Source: a virus. From it: DNA of 24,581 nt. The DNA lies in the IMG/VR virus record IMGVR_UViG_3300000234_000027, positions 1-24,581 of that record; one strand, 5' to 3'. Position numbers and translations under genes: made by a program. The notes below the pieces were generated by a model that did no database searches, was not told where the DNA came from, and was given only the letters and a program-made list of their open reading frames with translations. This document shows positions 5,428 to 22,808 of the stretch, piece by piece (positions within the stretch are counted from its first letter, which is position 1; each line of letters opens with the position of its first letter).

Positions 5428-5468
5428 AAAAAAAATTGTAAGAGGATAGTTTTTTTGATTATCCTCTT
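5428..5468 (-). terminator. Hairpin terminator closing the accessory operon (possibly bidirectional)
   Basis: A perfect 9-bp stem (5440-5448 with 5460-5468) has an 11-base loop. On the minus strand it is followed by ACAATTTTTTTT (5428-5439), a good Rho-independent signal. The stop codon of the last accessory gene lies inside the structure. On the plus strand the arm runs into TTTTCTTT, so it may also act in that direction. It separates the replication/accessory genes from terS. Confidence 0.75.
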
Positions 5469-7341: not shown

Positions 7342-7497
7342 TTAGTCTACGATTATTCCTAGAATTTTTCTTATTTCAAAATTAAACCCGTCATATTTTT
7401 CTTTCTCTATTTTTCTCAATAATTCATCTCTTCGCCAAATCTCGTATTCTAACTCTCTTATATATGCCCTCAGCGTTTTGATTTCGTCCTCACTCAT
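7342..7497 (-). CDS. Small coiled-coil protein (51 aa)
   Basis: A 51-residue frame runs from ATG at 7497 to TAA at 7342. It has a strong AGGAGAGG site about six bases upstream, overlaps the end of the preceding gene by eight bases, and fills an otherwise empty gap before the nuclease-like gene. The product starts MSEDEIKTLRAYIRELEYEI and forms one charged amphipathic helix, then a short C-terminal LGIIVD. The ribosome-binding site and tight packing argue for a real gene. Function unknown; it could dimerise or partner a neighbour. Confidence 0.65.
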   Translation of the reverse strand: MSEDEIKTLRAYIRELEYEIWRRDELLRKIEKEKYDGFNFEIRKILGIIVD

Positions 7498-7999
7498 TGC
7501 AAACCTCTCCTGCGTACTTTAAAATTCTCTGTCTAAAATCTAATGGGTTATCGGCTATTTGAAAGGCGGCGTGAGCAGCTACATGAGAGGCGATATCTTT
7601 ATGAGCAACAACCTTTAGAATAGCATGAGCAGCAATGTTTGCGGCAACGTGAGAAATACAAGCGTTGTGTTCTGTTTCAACAACCGCTTGACACGATTCA
7701 CGGATGATAACGTCTGTAACCTCTGATTTTTCTACCGCTTCAATAGCTCGTCTTGGCCTAAGATCCTTCGGGTAAATTGCCTCAAATTTTGGCAAAACTT
7801 CCTTTGCGCAAAATATTGCTATTTTCATATTCTGTTCTTTTGAGAGTGCCCTAAAAAGCCAAATTGCCCAAGGTAAAAAATGTTCACCAACTTGCACAAT
7901 AATTTCCTCAAAGTTTTCACTTTTAACATTTTCCTCATACCAGACCAATCCTTCCTTACACGGGTCTAATTTTTTCAAATCATCAATAGTAAATTTCAT
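7490..7999 (-). CDS. Imm5-like helical protein, paralog 2
   Basis: A 169-residue helical protein. Residues 1-95 are nearly the same as those of the gene immediately upstream (7996-8517). It contains IFCAKEVLPKFE and LRPRRAIEAVEK, the 'CA..vLp.fE...P.D.RPR.AIEA' signature that I recall from phage proteins annotated as Imm5-like putative immunity proteins. The C-terminal half is Ala/His-rich (HVAANIAAHAILKVVAHKD), again like the His/Ala repeats of that family, and differs wholly from its neighbour. The ATG overlaps the previous stop by four bases (ATGA) and has GAGGTG upstream. Biochemical function is not established. Role in toxin neutralisation or anti-defence is inference. Confidence 0.75.
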   Translation of the reverse strand: MKFTIDDLKKLDPCKEGLVWYEENVKSENFEEIIVQVGEHFLPWAIWLFRALSKEQNMKIAIFCAKEVLPKFEAIYPKDLRPRRAIEAVEKSEVTDVIIRESCQAVVETEHNACISHVAANIAAHAILKVVAHKDIASHVAAHAAFQIADNPLDFRQRILKYAGEVCNE

Positions 8000-8517
8000 T
8001 CTTGCACCTCACAAATTTCTTTCACATAAGTTAAAACTCTTTTTTTAAAGTCCTGCGATTTACCCCTACTAATATTAATAGAGGCAGTAGCAGCCTCAAC
8101 AGTGCAGCGTGTGGCAAAATAAGTATAATTATCATCACAAGCGGCGGCGGCGGCATAAGCGGAAGCAGATGCGTAAGAGGCTTCATTAAATGCTTTTGTG
8201 TAAAAAGAAGCAAAAGAAGAAACATATTGGTCAACATTCTTAAAGTTTTCTGCTGCTTCTATCGCTTGCCTTGGCCCAAAATCGTTAGGGTGCTTCGCTT
8301 CAAAAATTGGCAAAACTTCTTTTGCGCAAAATAAAGCTATTTTCTTATTCTGCTCTTCCGTTAATGCCCTAAAAAGCCAGATCGACCACAACCAACAATG
8401 ATCACCAACCTGCACAATAACATCCTCGAATTTTTCACTTTCAATATTTTCCTCATACCACCATAAGCCTTCTTTGCATGGCCCTAATTTCTTCAGATCT
8501 TCAATTGTGAATTTCAT
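7996..8517 (-). CDS. Imm5-like helical protein, paralog 1
   Basis: A 173-residue protein starts at ATG 8517, four bases after GAGGTG. A longer TTG reading from 8529 is unlikely because the GAGGTG lies inside it. The N-terminal half (MKFTIEDLKKLGPCKEGLWW, then FCAKEVLP.FE and FGPRQAIEAAE at about 80-90) matches the downstream paralog at roughly 70 percent by eye. The C-terminal half is Ala/Ser-rich (YASASAYAAAAACDD) and unrelated to it except for the last 25 residues. The conserved front and variable tail suggest a common scaffold with changed binding surface. The first 17 bases overlap the lipoprotein gene. Confidence 0.75.
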   Translation of the reverse strand: MKFTIEDLKKLGPCKEGLWWYEENIESEKFEDVIVQVGDHCWLWSIWLFRALTEEQNKKIALFCAKEVLPIFEAKHPNDFGPRQAIEAAENFKNVDQYVSSFASFYTKAFNEASYASASAYAAAAACDDNYTYFATRCTVEAATASINISRGKSQDFKKRVLTYVKEICEVQE

Positions 8518-8827
8518 TACACACCTCAATTTTATCTATTTTAGTCTCACTCCAGAAAGGGCCATTAACTTGGCTAAAATAAACATATAGCGGCCCTGTT
8601 AGTTCTAGCTTATCGACTATAGGGTTAACTACGTCCAGCTCCATCGTTCTTTGTTCTACGGGAAAACAGATATCATCCTCGCAAGTAAGTTCTTTTCCGT
8701 AGTGAATAAACAGTCTCTCCATAGGCCCTTGAATATTCACTTTAAAAGGCTGCCTGTAACAATCGGTCAATATTTTTTCACCTTTTCCACAACCAATAAA
8801 CAAAAAAACTAAAAGTAAATATTTCAT
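8501..8827 (-). CDS. Phage-encoded lipoprotein
   Basis: The 108-residue product starts with a short signal peptide (MKYLLLVFLFIGC) with a lipobox-like LFIGC at residues 9-13, so it is probably lipidated at Cys13 and held at a membrane. The mature part has paired cysteines (TDCYRQ, LTCEDDICF, VCNE) that could form disulfides, consistent with export. It overlaps the previous gene by four bases (ATGA). In other phages, small lipoproteins expressed outside the lysis cassette can block superinfecting phages at the receptor. That is the leading guess here and is not shown by sequence. Confidence 0.7.
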   Translation of the reverse strand: MKYLLLVFLFIGCGKGEKILTDCYRQPFKVNIQGPMERLFIHYGKELTCEDDICFPVEQRTMELDVVNPIVDKLELTGPLYVYFSQVNGPFWSETKIDKIEVCNEIHN

Positions 8828-11664: not shown

Positions 11665-11692
11665 TTGACCAACCAGTTTTCATTATATAAAG
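11665..11692 (+). promoter_or_regulatory. Candidate rightward early promoter
   Basis: TTGACC (11665-11670) is followed by TATAAA at 11686-11691 with 15-bp spacing, or TAAAGT at 17 bp. The transcript would begin near 11698, about 30 bases before the recE-like start codon. The -35 matches five of six consensus positions. This probably drives the recombination operon 11728-14661. Confidence 0.55.
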
Positions 11693-11727
11693 TGAACCAT
11701 CAATTAAAAAACAAAGGAGTTTTAAAA

Positions 11728-12684
11728 ATGGAAATGGGAATCGAAAACTTTGTACTTGCTGATGGTTCAGAAGTAGTTTTACCTTCACTTATTGAAGGCA
11801 ACTACTCGAACCACTTTAAAGACAATTTTACCAATGAAGAACACCACTCAAGCTACGAAGCGATTAGTTCATCGTCGCTTAAAACAATTATCGACTCGCC
11901 TTTTAGCTATCTGTCTGCTTTAAAGGATAGACAAAATGGGATACAGAAGAAGCCGACCGCTTCAATGAAATTTGGAACAATCGCACACATGATGATTTTG
12001 GAACCTGAGAAATTCAGAAAGCGATTTTTAATTGCTCCGAATTTCGGCGATCTTAGGAGTAAAGAAAACCGATTAAAAAAAGAATTATGGACAATGGAAA
12101 CCCCAAAAGATTCAGTAATATTTAATACAATAGACGAGTTCGACGACTTTACGGGCGTGGTTAATGCTATTGCAAAACACCCAAAAGCAAGAAACATTTT
12201 CAAAGAAGGAGTAGCTGAGACTTCTGGATTCTATAAAGATGAAAAAACTGGATTGCTTTGCAGAATAAGACCAGATTTTATTTCTACCAGAAAAGATTTA
12301 AATCTTTTCCTCGACTTTAAAACTGCTAAATCATCCGCATATCGAGAGTTCCAAAATCAAATATGGGCGTATAGATATGATATTCAATTAGTAATGTATA
12401 GAGAAGGAATCAGGGCGATAACTGGAAGCTATCCAGACGCAAGTGCGTGGGTGGTAGTAGAGAATAAAAAACCTTACGAAGTTGCCGTTTACGAAGCCGA
12501 TTACAAGTTAATAGAAGTAGCAACCGAATGGTATCATTTCGCCCTAGCACTTTTGAAAAAATGTATTGTGGAAAAAAACTTTCCACAAAGGCAGAGAGAG
12601 ATTCAGAAAATGGGCCTTCCGATTTATGCAGAAATGGAAGTTATCCCGACAGATTTTTTAAACAATAACGAAGAGGAGAATTAA
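11728..12684 (+). CDS. RecE-like PD-(D/E)XK exonuclease
   Basis: The ATG at 11728 follows AAAGGAG by eight bases; an in-frame TTG at 11665 lies in the promoter and is rejected. The 318-residue protein has the phage RecE/DUF3799 layout. Helical SSSLKTII and PFSYL (about 47-62) come first, then FGTIAHMMILEPEKF with H87, then RPDFIS (D183), then LFLDFKTAKS with the D196/K198 catalytic pair, and a YDIQLVMYREGI helix (217-228). It would resect double-stranded DNA ends 5' to 3' to give ssDNA for annealing. It is the first gene of the plus-strand operon, followed three bases later by the annealing-protein candidate. Confidence 0.85.
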   Translation: MEMGIENFVLADGSEVVLPSLIEGNYSNHFKDNFTNEEHHSSYEAISSSSLKTIIDSPFSYLSALKDRQNGIQKKPTASMKFGTIAHMMILEPEKFRKRFLIAPNFGDLRSKENRLKKELWTMETPKDSVIFNTIDEFDDFTGVVNAIAKHPKARNIFKEGVAETSGFYKDEKTGLLCRIRPDFISTRKDLNLFLDFKTAKSSAYREFQNQIWAYRYDIQLVMYREGIRAITGSYPDASAWVVVENKKPYEVAVYEADYKLIEVATEWYHFALALLKKCIVEKNFPQRQREIQKMGLPIYAEMEVIPTDFLNNNEEEN

Positions 12685-12687
12685 AAA

Positions 12688-13479
12688 ATGGAAAATCAGT
12701 TAGTAGAAACAAATCAAAATTCTGGCCAGGTGATCGAGTCAAGCCGAGCGATTCAAGAAGTAAAAGCCGAGTTGCAAATGGCCAAAATGTTCCCTAGAAA
12801 CGAGCTGGAAGTTGCACAAAAAATCAGTGTTGCTTGCCAGCGTTTCAGTCTTGCAAGCGTGTCAATGTACTCTTTCCCAAAGGGTGGATCAACCGTATCA
12901 GGGCCATCGATCCGCTTGGCCGAAACACTCGCCCGATGTTATGGAAATATTTCCTACGGCTTTAAAGAGCTTGAGGCCACTCACGGCAAGTCAATTATCC
13001 AAGTGACAGCGTGGGACAAAGAATCAAACGTGCGAGCTGTTAGAGAGTTTGTTATTGAACATAAAATCAGAACATCAAAAGGCGAAAAGATTTTAGTTGA
13101 CCCAAGAGACGTTTACGAACACGTGGCTTCTCAAGCTCAGAGAAAAGTTAGAGCTGTTATTCTTGAAATTATTCCAGCCGAATTTGTCGAAGATGCCGTT
13201 GAAATGTGTAAAATCACTCTGAAAAAAGGAATGTCTGAAGGCCCATTGATCGATAGAATAAAAAAAATGATTACTGCGTTTGCTGCACTTGGAGTAAACG
13301 AGGAAATGCTTTCAAAAAGAATCAATCATGGCCTTGAAATTTGCACCATCGACGAAGTTGTTGAGCTTCAAAAGATTTACGTCTCGCTGAAAGACAATGC
13401 GACTAAAAGACAAGATTGGTTTGAGGTGAAAGGGATACCAAATACCGATAAAACAAGCGAACTAAATAAGAAAATTTAA
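12688..13479 (+). CDS. Probable ssDNA-annealing (RecT/Redbeta-like) protein
   Basis: A 263-residue protein contains a block widespread in phages. It runs MFPRNELEVAQKISVACQRF, then SFPKGGSTVSGPSIRLAETL, then YGNISYGF and VTAWDKESN, then a DPRDVYEHVASQAQRKVRAV segment. The family usually sits beside a RecE-type nuclease, as here, and is best read as a single-strand annealing or ssDNA-binding partner. It would coat the 3' tails made by the exonuclease and pair them with complementary strands. The start has GAGGAG upstream. The annealing role rests on gene neighbourhood; I cannot confirm it by fold. Confidence 0.6.
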   Translation: MENQLVETNQNSGQVIESSRAIQEVKAELQMAKMFPRNELEVAQKISVACQRFSLASVSMYSFPKGGSTVSGPSIRLAETLARCYGNISYGFKELEATHGKSIIQVTAWDKESNVRAVREFVIEHKIRTSKGEKILVDPRDVYEHVASQAQRKVRAVILEIIPAEFVEDAVEMCKITLKKGMSEGPLIDRIKKMITAFAALGVNEEMLSKRINHGLEICTIDEVVELQKIYVSLKDNATKRQDWFEVKGIPNTDKTSELNKKI

Positions 13480-13502
13480 TAATAATTTAAGGAGAATTTA
13501 AA

Positions 13503-14378
13503 ATGGAAACAGAGTTAATAGATGAAAGAAGAAAGGAAATTGAGGCTTACTCCCCAATGTTACAAGTGTTGGATAGTCTAAAGGAGAGGCATTTAAACGT
13601 CATAATCGACGTTTCTAGCGCTAGTGGAATGGCATTGGCGAAAGAAGGTAGGAGAGAGTTAAAAGATCTCCGTTTGTCACTTGAGAAGGCAAGAAAGGCA
13701 GAGAAAGAAGATTCTTTGGCCTGGGGAAGATATGTAGACTCTGAAGCTAAGAGAATTTATGACGTTATCTTTCCAATGGAAGAGCGTTACGATTTTGAAA
13801 TCAAAAAAGAAGAAAAGCGTATTGCAGATGAAAAAGCCGAAAGAATTAGAATCTTAGAGTTAGAGATACAAAAAAAGAAAGAAGAAGAAGCTGAAAAAAT
13901 TCGTGCTGAAATGGAAGAAAAGTTAAAAGCTGAACGACTCGCCAAAGAGGAAGCTGAAAAAAAACTTGCAGAAGAACGTGAAAAGATGCGCCTAGAACGA
14001 GAAGCGTTCGAAAAAGAAAAGAAGATAATCGAAGAGCAGCGACTAAAAATTGAGAGAGAAGAAAAAGAGAGAATGTTGAAAATTGAGAGAGAAGAAAAGG
14101 CCGCACGACTATTGAAGGAAGAATCTGAACGAGCTGACCGATTAAAAAAAGAAGCTGAGTTAAGAGTTATCAGAGAAGAAAAAGAAAAAATTGAAGCTGA
14201 AGAACGCCGTATCGTTAGAGAGAAGGAAGAAAAAGAAGCTGAAATCAAACGCCAAATAAATCTGAAAAAAACTAATGAGCTAGATGGGATTAGCCTTCTT
14301 ACCGCCTTCTTGATAAGATACGAAGAGGACGAATTTTTTTCGCCTGTAATTGTTGCTATAAAAGAGTTCCTTGGTTAA
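13503..14378 (+). CDS. Long coiled-coil protein of the recombination operon
   Basis: A 291-residue protein. Residues 1-100 contain an ordered domain (EAYSPMLQVLDSLKER, then EGRRELKDLRLSLEKARKAE and a YVDSEAKRIYDVIFPMEERY segment). This resembles the DUF1351-type proteins that accompany phage annealing proteins. Residues 100-260 are almost unbroken E/K/R/A heptads (KEEEAEKIRAEMEEKLKAER and on), a single long coiled coil. A small globular tail (LDGISLLTAFLIRYEEDEFF) closes it. ATG 13503 has AAGGAGA upstream. Role unknown; it may bridge or organise the exonuclease and annealing proteins on DNA. Confidence 0.7.
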   Translation: METELIDERRKEIEAYSPMLQVLDSLKERHLNVIIDVSSASGMALAKEGRRELKDLRLSLEKARKAEKEDSLAWGRYVDSEAKRIYDVIFPMEERYDFEIKKEEKRIADEKAERIRILELEIQKKKEEEAEKIRAEMEEKLKAERLAKEEAEKKLAEEREKMRLEREAFEKEKKIIEEQRLKIEREEKERMLKIEREEKAARLLKEESERADRLKKEAELRVIREEKEKIEAEERRIVREKEEKEAEIKRQINLKKTNELDGISLLTAFLIRYEEDEFFSPVIVAIKEFLG

Positions 14379-14388
14379 TAGGAAAAAA

Positions 14389-14661
14389 ATGGGCTTTGAA
14401 TCAAACGAAAGTTGTATAGTTTGTAATTTTTTTGATGGTGGGAGCGTATGTTTCCACCACTTAAAAACTCAGAAAAGCTACCCTGAACATAGAAAAAAAC
14501 GGTGGAATTTAATACCTGTATGTTTGCGCTGCCATAATAATTTTCACTCAAAGGGAACCGTTTACATGGCCAACAGTTATCCATCTGTTCAAAAATGGCT
14601 ATTAAGTAATAATTGGGAGTTTTGCACTTTGACCGAAAAATGGCGTCACAAAGATGATTAA
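14389..14661 (+). CDS. HNH-like zinc protein (putative nuclease)
   Basis: A 90-residue protein starts at ATG 14389 behind AGGA; an in-frame TTG at 14371 would overlap the previous gene and is not preferred. It has the zinc/HNH arrangement: C9-x2-C12, a His pair H23/H24 (CFHHLKT), N40 (RWNLIPVC), then C45-x2-C48-H49 and H53 (CLRCHNNFH). Two CxxC pairs would hold zinc. The HH...N...H set fits a beta-beta-alpha-metal nuclease. In this operon a recombination nuclease (Rap/NinG-like or DUF968-like) is more likely than a homing enzyme. Its last four codons overlap a convergent minus-strand micro-gene. Confidence 0.65.
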   Translation: MGFESNESCIVCNFFDGGSVCFHHLKTQKSYPEHRKKRWNLIPVCLRCHNNFHSKGTVYMANSYPSVQKWLLSNNWEFCTLTEKWRHKDD

Positions 14662-14747
14662 AAGACCGATAAAGGTTTCAAAATAATAGCTATAAATAAA
14701 AAAATTAACAAAGCGACCAGTATAATTTCATCATCATCATCGTTCAT
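14658..14747 (-). CDS. 29-residue single-pass membrane peptide
   Basis: A short frame runs from ATG 14747, two bases after the stop of the lipoprotein gene, to TAA at 14658. The peptide is MNDDDDEII followed by about 18 unbroken hydrophobic residues (LVALLIFLFIAIIL) and KPLSVF. An acidic N-terminus, one membrane helix and a short basic tail make a coherent small membrane protein. It is the last reading frame of the lysis cassette, so a holin, pinholin or antiholin-like role is possible. No strong ribosome-binding site is seen; translation would depend on coupling to the upstream stop. It overlaps the end of the convergent HNH-like gene by four bases. Confidence 0.5.
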   Translation of the reverse strand: MNDDDDEIILVALLIFLFIAIILKPLSVF

Positions 14748-14749
14748 AC

Positions 14750-15043
14750 TTAATCTTGTGGTGCCCGACAAGCTTCTATATTTTCTTTTACTTTTCCTCT
14801 TAAATATGTCGCAAAATCTTCAATATCTGGCCCGATAACTCCATCACAATAACTAAGCTCTCTAGGAGCCGCAACAAAATCATCACCGCAATTTTTATCT
14901 TCAATTTTTGTCATTTTGTTGAAATCATAACAATAGGTAAAACAAGCGTTCTGCTTAAATGAAATAGTTTTTACAATCGTTGGCCGAAAACTAACACAAG
15001 ATATCACCAATAATGGTATTGTAATCATCCACATCCTTTGCAT
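14750..15043 (-). CDS. Lysis-cassette lipoprotein (possible o-spanin-like)
   Basis: A 97-residue protein begins MQRMWMITIPLLVISC, a signal peptide with a good lipobox (VISC), predicting lipidation at Cys16. The mature part has four or five more cysteines (NACFTYCYDF, KNCGDDF, SYCDGV, EACRAP), so disulfides in the periplasm are likely. It is encoded after the amidase and two small helical proteins. In a Gram-negative host an outer-membrane lipoprotein here suggests an Rz1-type spanin role, though it is larger and more Cys-rich than usual and not embedded in another gene. ATG 15043 has GAGG upstream. It overlaps the preceding gene by 53 bases. Confidence 0.65.
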   Translation of the reverse strand: MQRMWMITIPLLVISCVSFRPTIVKTISFKQNACFTYCYDFNKMTKIEDKNCGDDFVAAPRELSYCDGVIGPDIEDFATYLRGKVKENIEACRAPQD

Positions 15044-15320
15044 TTTTCAACCTCTTTATTTGGATCTCACCTTTTTTATTGTCGTAAATCAATTCACCTT
15101 TTCTTATAATTGCTTCAATCATCGGCTTTGCTACTTCATCAAATAAATTTTCAATAATATACTTAATTAACCAACCTTTAAACCCAACCGCTAATTTAGT
15201 ACCGAGAATTTTTTTTATTGCTTGTGTGACAACTTGGCTTTTTAACCAAGGTACAATTTTAGGTTTTAAGACCGCCCAAAATAGGGCGATCTTTTTTTTT
15301 AAAGCTAGTTTATTTTCCAT
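14991..15320 (-). CDS. Small amphipathic protein of the lysis cassette (holin-like candidate)
   Basis: A 109-residue basic protein. The first 70 residues alternate hydrophobic stretches with Lys (ALKKKIALFWAVLKPKIVPW, then GFKGWLIKYIIENLFDEV), a pattern able to lie in or on a membrane but with no clean 20-residue span. The remainder is soluble (KGEIQIKRLKNAKDVDDYNT). It is two genes downstream of the amidase, where a holin or holin partner is expected. ATG 15320 overlaps the previous gene by 11 bases and has no clear ribosome-binding site. Codons for KKKIALFWAVLK also form a plus-strand terminator. Confidence 0.55.
   Translation of the reverse strand: MENKLALKKKIALFWAVLKPKIVPWLKSQVVTQAIKKILGTKLAVGFKGWLIKYIIENLFDEVAKPMIEAIIRKGELIYDNKKGEIQIKRLKNAKDVDDYNTIIGDILC
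15268..15300 (+). terminator. Rho-independent terminator on the plus strand, inside a minus-strand gene
   Basis: Arms 15268-15277 (aagaccgccc) and 15284-15293 (gggcgatctt) pair at 9 of 10 positions around a six-base loop. They are followed by nine Ts (15292-15300). It faces transcripts coming from the recombination operon, whose last gene ends at 14661. No better plus-strand terminator is seen between 14661 and here. Confidence 0.75.
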
Positions 15321-15540
15321 CAATTTTTTTTAGTTCTTCATCGATCATGCCTTTGATCATTGCATAAAAATCATCAACCTTGTTCTCAGTTCTTTTTGAA
15401 ATCCTTAGAACCATGTCTGAAACTTCCAGTACCACAATTTCCAACACTTCTCTTGATACCTGTTTACCTTCTTCTTTCAATTTAGCAAAAGATGCCTTTA
15501 GTTCTTCTTCCAAAATTGATTTAAAATTCTGTTCCATCAT
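15310..15540 (-). CDS. Small helical protein of the lysis cassette (76 aa)
   Basis: The start is probably the first of two adjacent ATGs at 15540/15537, five to eight bases after AAGGA; an ATG at 15564 lies further inside the amidase gene. The 76-residue product is nearly all helix and charged (MMEQNFKSILEEELKASFAK, ending EELKKIDGK), with a central less polar stretch (EVLEIVVLEVSDMVL, about residues 30-44) too polar to be a firm membrane helix. It overlaps the end of the amidase gene. Role unknown; it could regulate or partner the adjacent membrane-active protein. Confidence 0.6.
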   Translation of the reverse strand: MMEQNFKSILEEELKASFAKLKEEGKQVSREVLEIVVLEVSDMVLRISKRTENKVDDFYAMIKGMIDEELKKIDGK

Positions 15541-15982
15541 TTCTATCCTTGTTAGAGTTATCATCTATTGTATTTTGTTTTTGCCAGATAGAGAAACTTT
15601 TTTTAAAAGTTTCAATGGTAAAATTTGGACAAGTTTTATTACTGTTAAATTGATAGTGACAAAAAATGTTTTTCTCTGTTAGATTATAAACATCCAAAGT
15701 AACGTCAACTAAGTTGAAAAGAGCTTGTTCCTGAGCTAGACTAAATTTATTAATACCATGTAAGCAGATTCCTATACTCGTAGCGTTGTGCCCTTGACAA
15801 TGCGCACCAATCGCTGAAATCTTTCTTCCTTCTTGGATTGTCCCGTTTTTATTGATAAAAAAATGATAGCCTACATCCGAAAAGCCTCTTTCTAGGTGCC
15901 ATTTTCTTATTACGTCGATTGAGTCATGTTTAGGATTGTCAGAAGCAGAGCAATGAAGAATTATCTTGTCAATCTTTCTCAC
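15521..15982 (-). CDS. Endolysin, N-acetylmuramoyl-L-alanine amidase (T7 lysozyme type)
   Basis: A 153-residue Amidase_2 domain protein cutting the bond between N-acetylmuramic acid and L-Ala in peptidoglycan. The zinc ligands are visible: H10 (IILHCSAS), H109 (FCHYQFN) and C118 (KTCPNF). The family's Lys (K116) sits beside the last ligand, and the substrate-side VGYHFFINKNG (37-47) and GAHCQGHN (59-66) are typical. It ends in a polar tail, with no signal peptide or cell-wall-binding domain, so it needs a holin to reach the wall. It starts with GTG at 15982, sharing one base with the previous stop; GAGG lies seven bases upstream. Confidence 0.9.
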   Translation of the reverse strand: MRKIDKIILHCSASDNPKHDSIDVIRKWHLERGFSDVGYHFFINKNGTIQEGRKISAIGAHCQGHNATSIGICLHGINKFSLAQEQALFNLVDVTLDVYNLTEKNIFCHYQFNSNKTCPNFTIETFKKSFSIWQKQNTIDDNSNKDRNDGTEF

Positions 15983-19687: not shown

Positions 19688-20394
19688 TACTTGACCCCAT
19701 TCAAATTAAAATGATTTATTAACAATCTCTTTAAATCTTCTACACCTTTATCATCAATAGCAACTATCAATTTATATGCAGTTGCTGGCATCCCATCGTT
19801 AAGAAGTCCGTTAATCTCTGCAAAAGTAATCCTCATGGCTTTTATTTCTTCGACTGTTTTACTTTCGATGTAATTGTAACCCCTAACGATGTCCAGTGCC
19901 TCGCTACAAATCTGCTTTATCTTTCCACCTGTGTTTTTTAATACAACTAGCTCATTTTGCTTCGTCATTTTTTCCAAGATCACAATATGCGCCGTTTCAA
20001 TCTCTACAAGTAAACTTTCTACTTCTGAATAGTTTTCATTATCAAACAAAAGTTTGATCCAAATTGCTACGTTAGGGTAGTCAACATGAACCGCCCTAAA
20101 TGCTTCATCAAAATAAATCATAGCTTCAATTCTTTTTTTGATATCTTCGACTCTTTCTTTCTCATCTTTAATCATCTGCGCTTTATAAGTAGCAAAAACT
20201 TCATTCATACTGGCAAGCGTTGGCATTGTTAAACTCGAATGTATAACAACATTGTCGTACATCGACGAACTAGGATTATTTAACAAAATCCACTTTTCTT
20301 CTGTATTTGGGATCGTCGAAAAATCAACCATTAATTCCAAGATAGTAAAAAAAATGTTATCAATAGTTAATTTTTCCATTTGATTTAATGTCAT
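19687..20394 (-). CDS. Hypothetical tail-module protein (235 aa)
   Basis: A 235-residue, mostly helical, acidic protein. The ATG at 20394 has GGAG five to seven bases upstream; the Met at residue 6 is a second option. Sequence features are a hydrophobic N-terminal stretch (DNIFFTILELMVDFSTI), a central KDEKERVEDIKKRIEAMIYF helix and a C-terminal KRLLINHFNLNG. There is no signal peptide and no catalytic motif. It sits between the large fibre and the XhlA-like gene. It may be a fibre chaperone or a structural accessory; the position downstream of a fibre gene is common for assembly chaperones, but this is inference. Confidence 0.65.
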   Translation of the reverse strand: MTLNQMEKLTIDNIFFTILELMVDFSTIPNTEEKWILLNNPSSSMYDNVVIHSSLTMPTLASMNEVFATYKAQMIKDEKERVEDIKKRIEAMIYFDEAFRAVHVDYPNVAIWIKLLFDNENYSEVESLLVEIETAHIVILEKMTKQNELVVLKNTGGKIKQICSEALDIVRGYNYIESKTVEEIKAMRITFAEINGLLNDGMPATAYKLIVAIDDKGVEDLKRLLINHFNLNGVK

Positions 20395-20396
20395 GT

Positions 20397-22808
20397 TTAC
20401 TCCAATTTAGTTATTTTGATTGTGCCCATGTATTCGTCCCCACCACTACTCGCCCCCTTAGTCCTAAACTCCATAGTTGTTACACCTGTTAAGGTTAAAG
20501 TGAAATGGGCATCTCTAAACGGTATGCTATCTCCTGTCATGTTATATATTAAGTTAAGCAGCTCAACAATTTGAGAACTGGTTCCAGTATTATACAACTG
20601 CAAACTCAACCACCCAGTAGTGCTATATGCGCCTACTGGCACACCTAAGGCATACTTCCCTGCTGGCAGGGTTAACCTATTAGAAGCTACACTAGCACCT
20701 ATCGAGTCCCCAGTAACAGAGCTTAAGGTTTGCGTCTTATAGGAAGTTGTACTTGATATATAGGTATTTTCATAAGTAGCATGAACTCTTACATAAGCAA
20801 TTCTTTGCGCTGGCATTGCCACAACTAAACCACTCTCTAAAGTTTTGCCCCAAGTTGGCTTTGAGTCTAGCTCTACGTCCCCAGAAACCATTGCAAGATT
20901 GCTTGCACCAGAGGCGTATAAATAAATAGCAGACCCCGAGACCGAGGAATCTATTGTGCTATAATAACCAACCCCTTCATTTGCCATTACGGCCGAAACC
21001 GCTTGTCCGTTGGTATATCCAACCTTAAATGCTACACCAGAAACAGTTAGGGTTATTGAGCTGACAGCAGTGCTGATCCCACCTCTAATATTAAATCTAA
21101 GCCTATGTGTTCCATTAACAGTAGTATAATAAGTACCTACGGCCCTAGTAGTTGTCCAGTTAGTCCCTGTTACAGTTAAATCAACTTGCTCTTCTAACGC
21201 CTGTTTTGAAGCCGAGATAACGTGCGCCGTAGTAGCTGTTTCGACGATGTTTAGGTAATGATACGCTGGGGAATTAGATAGCGTGGACGATACGTTAGTT
21301 CTAACGCTTAATATATCGCCAACAGTAAATTCACCTTTCTTTGAAATATAAGTACCAAAGCAGAAATTTTCAGTTGTGCTAGACCCTACGGTTAGGGACT
21401 TATACTCTGAACCATTTTTAAATAAAGCTATTGCTCGTCCTGTTGCAGTAGTAAAATAAGTTCCCGTGCTAACAGTTATAACTGAATCACTTTTTTGTAC
21501 TGTGTAGTAATGAGTATCCCCTGTACTTGTCCAGCCTGTGCCACTACCTGAGAAATGAATATCCTCTGTGTCAGCAGTTATTGTTCTACCGTCATTCCCC
21601 TCTAGCTTAATTGAATTAATATATTGAAGATCGATCGTTTTCCAAGGTGCATCAGTAAACTCGATATCATCAAAAACTAATGTCGCCGCTTCTCCTGTAA
21701 CAATTTGAAATCGAATTTGTACTTGAGTACATGAGGATAAAACATATCCAACTACTTTACCAAAAGAAGCGGTAGGCGTTAATAATAACTCGCCCATCGA
21801 AACCGAGTTGGTAACATCGTAGAAAATTGCTTTTATATAGTTAGCAGTTCCCGAATACTTGTATTGAAATTCTATTCCGTTTTCTTTGTTCCAAGCTCTT
21901 TGCGGTACTGTTATTGTCGGCGAGATCACATATTCATTAGCTGCACTTGCTTGGTTAGTTAATTTAAAACTTTTTAGTCCATTTAAGTTTGCGCTTGCCT
22001 CTTCTGTGAATGTTGCATTTGTTATATTTGTCGTGTCCCAAGTGCTAATTAAATCATCATCAGCATTTAATGCGCCATAGATGGCACTTCCACCGCTGCC
22101 GCCGCCTCCTCCGATGGATATTAAAGCTCCATCTTTTACCCCATAATATTTTTTTGAATCACTTGCGTAAAGTAATTCACCGTTTGTTGCTGTTGCTGCG
22201 TAAGTAACCAGATTAGCGTCTGTGTCGGTTTTACTTATAATCTTAGAAGCTGATATGCTTTTATTGGATACGACTTGAACGCTAGAAATATCTATAATCT
22301 CTTTCTCGCTCCCTTCAGGCCCTATTTTAAACTTACTGGCCAAAGCATCTTCGTAGACGAAAGACCCATTTACTCCACTTCGTTCGACCGTGATCCCTGC
22401 GCCCTCTGCTGTTACATCATTACCGCCATTGTTAATAGTTATATTACTATCCGTCACTTCAAGCGTAGTGCTGTTAACTGTCGTTGTAGTCCCTGCAACG
22501 TTTAAATCCCCACCAATATTAGCGTTACCAGACAAGTGCAAATCTTTAAATTTTGTTCCCGTTGCCCCTATGTCTCTCGTTCCCGTAGCTTCGGGCATGA
22601 TGTTTTGGGCAAAAGTTTTGCCGCTAAGTTGCTCAGTCCCATCAAGTGTAGCTATAACATTTTTTGTTACACCCCCGTCATGCGACAATTCGAGTTTATG
22701 TGTCGTCTCATTACTATTTAACTGTGATCCACCGATGTTTATTTTTTTATCATCGACTGACCCCGTTTTTGCGATCGTTACACTGTCATTTTCAATTAGT
22801 TTACTCAT
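20397..22808 (-). CDS. Large tail fibre / receptor-binding protein
   Basis: An 803-residue protein starts at ATG 22808 seven bases after GGAGG. It begins with an attachment segment, then about residues 70-140 show RDIGATGTKFKDLHLSGNAN and GGDLNVAGTTTTVN, a repeat type common in trimeric fibres. A GGGGGSGG hinge near 235 precedes a jelly-roll-like domain (YVISPTITVPQRAW, IEFQYKYSGTANYI) that could bind carbohydrate. The last 400 residues hold consecutive C1q/TNF-like beta sandwiches (LPAGKYALGVPVGAY, SIPFRDAHFTLTLTGVTTME), usual for C-terminal trimerisation and receptor contact. It is the best receptor-binding candidate. It overlaps the previous gene by ATGA. Confidence 0.75.
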   Translation of the reverse strand: MSKLIENDSVTIAKTGSVDDKKINIGGSQLNSNETTHKLELSHDGGVTKNVIATLDGTEQLSGKTFAQNIMPEATGTRDIGATGTKFKDLHLSGNANIGGDLNVAGTTTTVNSTTLEVTDSNITINNGGNDVTAEGAGITVERSGVNGSFVYEDALASKFKIGPEGSEKEIIDISSVQVVSNKSISASKIISKTDTDANLVTYAATATNGELLYASDSKKYYGVKDGALISIGGGGGSGGSAIYGALNADDDLISTWDTTNITNATFTEEASANLNGLKSFKLTNQASAANEYVISPTITVPQRAWNKENGIEFQYKYSGTANYIKAIFYDVTNSVSMGELLLTPTASFGKVVGYVLSSCTQVQIRFQIVTGEAATLVFDDIEFTDAPWKTIDLQYINSIKLEGNDGRTITADTEDIHFSGSGTGWTSTGDTHYYTVQKSDSVITVSTGTYFTTATGRAIALFKNGSEYKSLTVGSSTTENFCFGTYISKKGEFTVGDILSVRTNVSSTLSNSPAYHYLNIVETATTAHVISASKQALEEQVDLTVTGTNWTTTRAVGTYYTTVNGTHRLRFNIRGGISTAVSSITLTVSGVAFKVGYTNGQAVSAVMANEGVGYYSTIDSSVSGSAIYLYASGASNLAMVSGDVELDSKPTWGKTLESGLVVAMPAQRIAYVRVHATYENTYISSTTSYKTQTLSSVTGDSIGASVASNRLTLPAGKYALGVPVGAYSTTGWLSLQLYNTGTSSQIVELLNLIYNMTGDSIPFRDAHFTLTLTGVTTMEFRTKGASSGGDEYMGTIKITKLE

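What the first reader, a model, noticed from the sequence alone, without database searches (positions are those of the whole stretch)
14658..15300. Plus-strand terminator embedded in a lysis gene implies antisense RNA over the lysis cassette
The recombination operon ends at 14661, but the first convincing plus-strand terminator is at 15268-15300, inside a minus-strand gene. Read-through transcripts would be antisense to the membrane peptide, the lipoprotein and most of the 109-residue protein. Early expression of this operon could thus delay lysis-gene expression, and the terminator itself is written in codons for KKKIALFWAVLK.
Basis: partly seen in the sequence, partly recalled or inferred. 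Interest (0 to 1): 0.6.

Follow-up and report, generated by a model that had tools for sequence, protein, structure and literature searches.

The report
One-way terminator inside opposing lysis gene
In an uncultured phage found in a Bdellovibrio metagenome bin, the only stop signal for the early recombination operon lies about 630 bases too far, inside a gene on the opposite strand, so its RNA probably overlaps the last lysis-region genes; such overlaps are known in bacteria, and nothing here shows that this one times lysis.

Summary
The sequence observation holds. At 15269-15292 (+) a GC-rich hairpin followed by U8 is the best intrinsic-terminator-like site in the whole 24.6-kb record (d=22.2; next 1.6). 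It lies about 630 nt downstream of the only plus-strand operon, inside codons 7-18 of a minus-strand 109-aa gene. Synonymous recoding rarely recreates it (9 of 2000 locally; 2 of 100 recoded windows have any site that strong), and all five stem wobble positions use minority codons. It works one way: the minus-strand RNA forms an even better stem (G.U instead of C.A) but has no U-tract after it.

The most likely role is a plain insulating terminator that leaves a 640-nt 3' overlap with the end of the late operon. The step from antisense RNA to delayed lysis is not supported: the amidase, the 75-aa gene and the 109-aa gene's own start lie outside the overlap, and no tested relative has such a site within its lysis genes (two have strong terminators just past the opposing operon's end; the nearest has none). 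The only identical copy is the same phage. Convergent transcripts overlapping through a misplaced terminator are a known arrangement (PMC7154746): a new member of a known kind.

The parts
11665..11693 (+). promoter-like site TTGACC-17-TAAAGT upstream of the plus-strand recombination operon (consensus match only)
   Evidence: the first gene most likely starts at ATG 11728 behind aaaggag, not at TTG 11665
11728..14661 (+). plus-strand operon: exonuclease VIII/DUF3799, a gene of phrog_3657, a coiled-coil protein (phrog_16469), HNH endonuclease
   Evidence: PHROGs/Pfam matches; ORFs
15269..15300 (+). intrinsic terminator: stem AGA-C-CGCCC / GGGCG-A-TCT, loop AAAATA, then T8
   Evidence: recoding nulls
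14662..15300 (+). predicted 3' extension of the plus-strand transcript, antisense to the end of the late operon (inferred)
   Evidence: no plus-strand terminator above d=-25 between 14661 and 15268; no unusual overall structure
14991..15320 (-). 109-aa gene that contains the terminator in codons 7-18; no recognisable family
14750..15043 (-). 97-aa Cys-rich protein with lipobox-like signal (VISC), spanin-like position at the end of the lysis region
   Evidence: lipoproteins in the same position in L173, L177 and L178
14658..14747 (-). 29-aa hydrophobic ORF, weakly supported, overlaps the 3' end of the HNH gene
   Evidence: codon score negative, no clear ribosome-binding site; maximum hydropathy 3.0
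15310..15537 (-). 75-aa gene, no family; its 3' end overlaps the start of the 109-aa gene
15521..15982 (-). N-acetylmuramoyl-L-alanine amidase (endolysin), outside the predicted antisense overlap
   Evidence: Amidase_2 E=1.2e-15; phrog_822

Best explanation
The hairpin is a one-way intrinsic terminator for the plus-strand (presumably early) recombination operon. The operon converges tail-to-tail with the late operon, and no usable terminator lies in the junction. RNA polymerase therefore runs on for about 630 nt, antisense to the 29-aa ORF, the lipoprotein and most of the 109-aa gene, and stops at the U8 tract inside the 5' coding part of the 109-aa gene. The main job is insulation: keeping early transcription from running further into the endolysin and tail genes. 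Because the minus-strand RNA has no U-tract after the stem, late transcription passes through. Shown: the sequence, its rank, its rarity under synonymous recoding, its asymmetry. Inferred: that it terminates in vivo, that the operon is early, and that the overlap has little regulatory effect.
For: Best site of the record on either strand, d=22.2 against 1.6; the same scoring gives 36 for the trp attenuator, and 57 of 170 sites in 163 comparison loci reach 22.2. Rare under recoding that keeps the proteins. All five stem wobble positions carry minority codons: AAG 0.28, ATC 0.20, GCC 0.15, GCG 0.18, GTC 0.10 (frequencies). Correct strand, and first site downstream of the only plus-strand operon. 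U-tract score 5.16 on plus against 0.05 on minus. Relatives L173 and L177 also have a strong terminator for the operon facing the lysis genes, so one is expected here.
Against: The plus-strand stem has a C-A mismatch, while the minus-strand stem is perfect and more stable (-17.9 against -15.1 kcal/mol in the same 51 nt), so the pairing could be kept for the sense RNA. Only one independent sequence is known, so conservation is untestable; the identical copy is the same phage. Window-wide chance is about 2%, not negligible for a site picked by eye. Rho-dependent termination before 15268 cannot be excluded.
Confidence: 0.68

Rival explanations
1. The hairpin's function is in the sense (late, minus-strand) mRNA: a stable 10-bp stem at codons 10-18 directly after an A9 run, acting on mRNA processing or stability, ribosome pausing, or frameshifting/slippage at A AAA AAG.
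For: The sense stem is perfect and much better than recoded sequences (0 of 3000 reach -17.9 kcal/mol). The A AAA AAG heptamer is in the correct frame directly upstream.
Against: Both alternative frames stop at once: -1 gives DRPILGGLKT*, +1 gives SPYFGRS*, so frameshifting would only yield a peptide of about 20 residues. The spacer between heptamer and stem is about 0-2 nt, shorter than in known -1 frameshift signals (general knowledge). The sense strand lacks any further signal, and the U8 tract on the other strand would be unexplained.
Confidence: 0.14
2. Chance: a run of lysine codons gives a U-tract on the opposite strand, and the codons that follow happen to pair.
For: Lys runs may make antisense U-tracts common: 47 of 170 terminator-like sites in comparison loci are antisense inside ORFs, 9 are sense. 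2 of 100 recoded windows hold an equal site.
Against: Local recoding reaches it in 9 of 2000; it falls on the right strand and directly downstream of the only plus-strand operon, which has no other terminator.
Confidence: 0.12
3. Regulatory antisense (excludon-like): early read-through RNA, defined by this terminator, base-pairs with late mRNA or interferes with late transcription and delays the lipoprotein and 109-aa protein, hence lysis.
For: Overlap of about 640 nt is predicted and covers the lipoprotein's ribosome-binding site. Long overlapping 3' UTRs between convergent bacterial genes are documented, and noncontiguous operons occur in phages (PMC7154746).
Against: The amidase, the 75-aa gene and the 109-aa start are not covered. 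No tested relative has such a site within its lysis genes. If the operon is shut off late, its antisense RNA would not coexist with late mRNA. Reciprocal invasion by the late transcript is just as likely, since no minus-strand terminator above d=-20 lies in the plus operon.
Confidence: 0.06

Closest known systems
Long 3' UTR overlap between convergent genes that lack a terminator between them (overlapping transcription / excludon review, PMC7154746, Figure 3b)
   Same: Convergent transcription units; [quoted passage not shown] predicted antisense 3' overlap.
   Different: Here it is predicted from sequence only, in a phage; no transcript or regulatory effect is shown.
Canonical intrinsic (Rho-independent) terminator
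   Same: GC-rich hairpin, then U8; d'Aubenton-Carafa-type score 22 (trp attenuator 36 on the same scale).
   Different: Internal C-A mismatch; encoded within another protein's codons; acts in one direction only.
Terminator-like sites antisense in ORFs of other viral contigs (for example L138 at 9320, d=28.6, 650 nt past the upstream gene end; L123 at 7427, d=20.7, 773 nt)
   Same: Strong plus-strand site inside an opposing ORF, several hundred nt after the nearest same-strand gene.
   Different: Different phages; ORFs called mechanically, no function examined.

Membership tests
Intrinsic (Rho-independent) terminator | GC-rich stem of at least 5 bp directly followed by a U-rich tract | tested here: met
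   5 GC pairs + mismatch + 3-4 pairs, then U8
Intrinsic (Rho-independent) terminator | RNA 3' ends map to the U-tract | not testable with these tools
   no transcript data for this uncultured phage
Bidirectional terminator | U-tract follows the stem on both strands | tested here: not met
   minus-strand tail score 0.05 against 5.16 on plus
Convergent overlapping transcription units | no terminator between the converging genes; first terminator inside the opposing gene | tested here: met
   (prediction on the plus side); no minus-strand terminator above d=-20 in the plus operon either
Excludon / antisense-regulated pair | the overlapping RNA changes expression of the opposing genes | not testable with these tools
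   needs strand-specific RNA and protein measurements
Excludon / antisense-regulated pair | arrangement kept among relatives | tested here: inconclusive
   Of four relatives with a lysis region, none has a site within the lysis genes, but they are distant and no homologue of the annealing-type gene was found in them
Programmed -1 frameshift signal | in-frame slippery heptamer, 5-9 nt spacer, stem, and a usable -1 frame | tested here: not met
   heptamer present, spacer about 0-2 nt, -1 frame closes after 10 codons

The most novel reading that the evidence does not exclude
The codons of a lysis-region gene have been selected to encode a one-way terminator for the opposing early operon, and the resulting 640-nt antisense RNA is used as a timer that holds down the lipoprotein (spanin-like) step of lysis until early transcription stops.
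Probability: 0.05. Interest if true: 0.6.

Novelty: new member of a known kind. Interest (0 to 1): 0.25.

Why it matters
It is a clear example of a coding sequence that appears to carry a one-directional terminator for the opposite strand, written in synonymous positions. If transcription data showed that the overlap matters, it would be a simple cis mechanism linking early-gene shut-off to the last lysis genes. As it stands it mainly warns that phage operon ends need not lie between genes.

Tried and rejected
Orthologues of the 109-aa protein and of the lipoprotein: none in viral contigs; none of the 109-aa protein among phage records or in 128 further genomes of the family of the Bdellovibrio bin; the single genome-contig hit is the same phage. 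Related phages by terminase (L082, L090, L091) gave no usable lysis region: L082 ends just before it, the others lacked the tail-collar homologue. Only the tail-protein profile gave relatives with the junction. Programmed frameshifting at A AAA AAG rejected because both frames close at once. Bidirectional terminator rejected. Known structured RNA: no Rfam match, no tRNA. A globally structured antisense RNA: z=+1.1, ordinary. A non-coding start for the 109-aa gene downstream of the hairpin: codons 1-66 score +17 bits in frame, so the hairpin most likely lies in coding sequence. Paper searches found the general phenomenon but nothing on this phage or on antisense control of a lysis cassette by such a terminator.

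Full report
What is in the sequence. The window is a virus record of 24,581 bases. All convincing genes run on the minus strand except one operon, 11728-14661, with an exonuclease VIII-type gene, a phrog_3657 gene, a coiled-coil gene and an HNH gene. On its right the operon meets, tail to tail, the end of the minus-strand tail/lysis operon: tail genes, amidase (15521-15982), a 75-aa gene, the 109-aa gene (14991-15320), a Cys-rich lipoprotein (14750-15043) and a doubtful 29-aa hydrophobic ORF (14658-14747).

The hairpin. AGA-C-CGCCC-AAAATA-GGGCG-A-TCT followed by eight T lies at 15269-15300 on the plus strand. Scored by stem energy per length plus U-tract, it is the best site on either strand of the record (22.2; second 1.6; nothing above -2.9 on the minus strand). 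The trp attenuator scores 36 on the same scale. Between 14661 and 15268 the plus strand has nothing better than -25.7.

More than chance? A plain motif count shows no excess (5 found, 4.4 expected). With proteins kept and codons redrawn from the record's own usage, 9 of 2000 recodings of the local minus-strand genes reach the score, all at the same place (probably because the protein's KKK supplies the U-tract); 9 of 3000 do for codons 2-25; and 2 of 100 fully recoded windows hold any such site. The five wobble positions in the stem (AAG, ATC, GCC, GCG, GTC) are all minority codons here. So the site is unlikely to be accidental, but one window-wide chance in about fifty remains, before its position downstream of the only plus operon is considered.

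Which strand is it for? The minus-strand RNA folds better because C-A on plus becomes G-U on minus (-17.9 against -15.1 kcal/mol), and none of 3000 recodings reach the sense fold. But only the plus strand has a U-tract after the stem (5.16 against 0.05). This fits a terminator that stops the plus operon and lets late transcription pass. Repairing the mismatch by a first-position change would turn Val into Ile, so the protein may hold it in place (inference). A sense-strand role cannot be excluded; frameshifting at the in-frame A AAA AAG is unlikely because both other frames close within 11 codons.

What would be antisense? RNA from 14662 to 15300 would cover the 29-aa ORF, the lipoprotein with its ribosome-binding site, and 310 of 330 nt of the 109-aa gene, but not that gene's start, the 75-aa gene or the amidase. 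The late operon also lacks a minus-strand terminator near its end, so late RNA may invade the recombination operon in turn.

Relatives. The same phage lies in a Bdellovibrio metagenome bin (DYOQ01000055.1; 99.88% over 17.9 kb, identical at the hairpin); the bin suggests, but does not prove, the host. A tail-protein profile found five distant relatives besides the already known L082. Lipoprotein genes close the lysis region of L173, L177 and L178; L175 carries one too, followed by two more plus-strand genes. L173 has a strong terminator (29.8) for the opposing operon in the gap; L177 has one (29.0) just past the opposing operon's last gene, 1.7 kb from its lipoprotein; L178, the closest, whose operons abut within 13 bp, has none above -15, and L175 has none. 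The embedded position is therefore not conserved, and where a terminator exists it spares the lysis genes. These relatives carry no detected homologue of the annealing-type gene, so the junction here may have been rebuilt; the HNH gene next to it has neutral codon usage (0.2 bits) and may be a late arrival.

How common is this? In 163 comparison loci (1.6 Mb), 114 of 170 sites above zero were outside ORFs, 47 antisense inside ORFs and 9 sense inside ORFs; at d of at least 15, 64, 9 and 6. Sites antisense in ORFs are thus a minority but not rare, perhaps partly because lysine runs make U-tracts.

Conclusion. Most likely an ordinary one-way intrinsic terminator that sits inside the opposing gene, giving a convergent 3' overlap of a type already described (PMC7154746). 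Control of lysis timing is possible but unsupported.

Noticed in passing
window 11665-11728: The ORF listed from TTG 11665 most likely starts at ATG 11728 (aaaggag); the TTGACC at 11665 looks like a -35 element of the operon's promoter.
   Followed up: partly
window 14371-14661: HNH gene with codon usage unlike the rest of the record (0.2 bits against about 20-35 for the genes next to it), possibly a recent insertion at the convergent junction.
   Followed up: no
window 20070-20148 and 22581-22680: Against the near-identical phage in the Bdellovibrio bin (L087), 20 of 22 differences fall in two clusters of 80-100 bp in tail-region genes; mixed substitution types, so recombination tracts or strain mixture rather than a retroelement-type pattern.
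   Followed up: no
window 7490-8529: Two adjacent paralogous genes of phrog_38757 (unknown function).
   Followed up: no
window 5442-5466: Perfect 10-bp palindromic hairpin with a U-rich tail on the plus strand, in or next to the gap upstream of the small terminase gene; weak terminator score 1.6, with no plus-strand gene to serve.
   Followed up: no
L178:10182-11021; L173:6300-7269; L177:9703-10635: Distant relatives keep a lysis region of one or two small helical or membrane proteins followed by a Cys-rich lipoprotein, with no significant similarity to the window's proteins (best E about 0.06-0.1): a possible fast-evolving holin/spanin-like module.
   Followed up: partly
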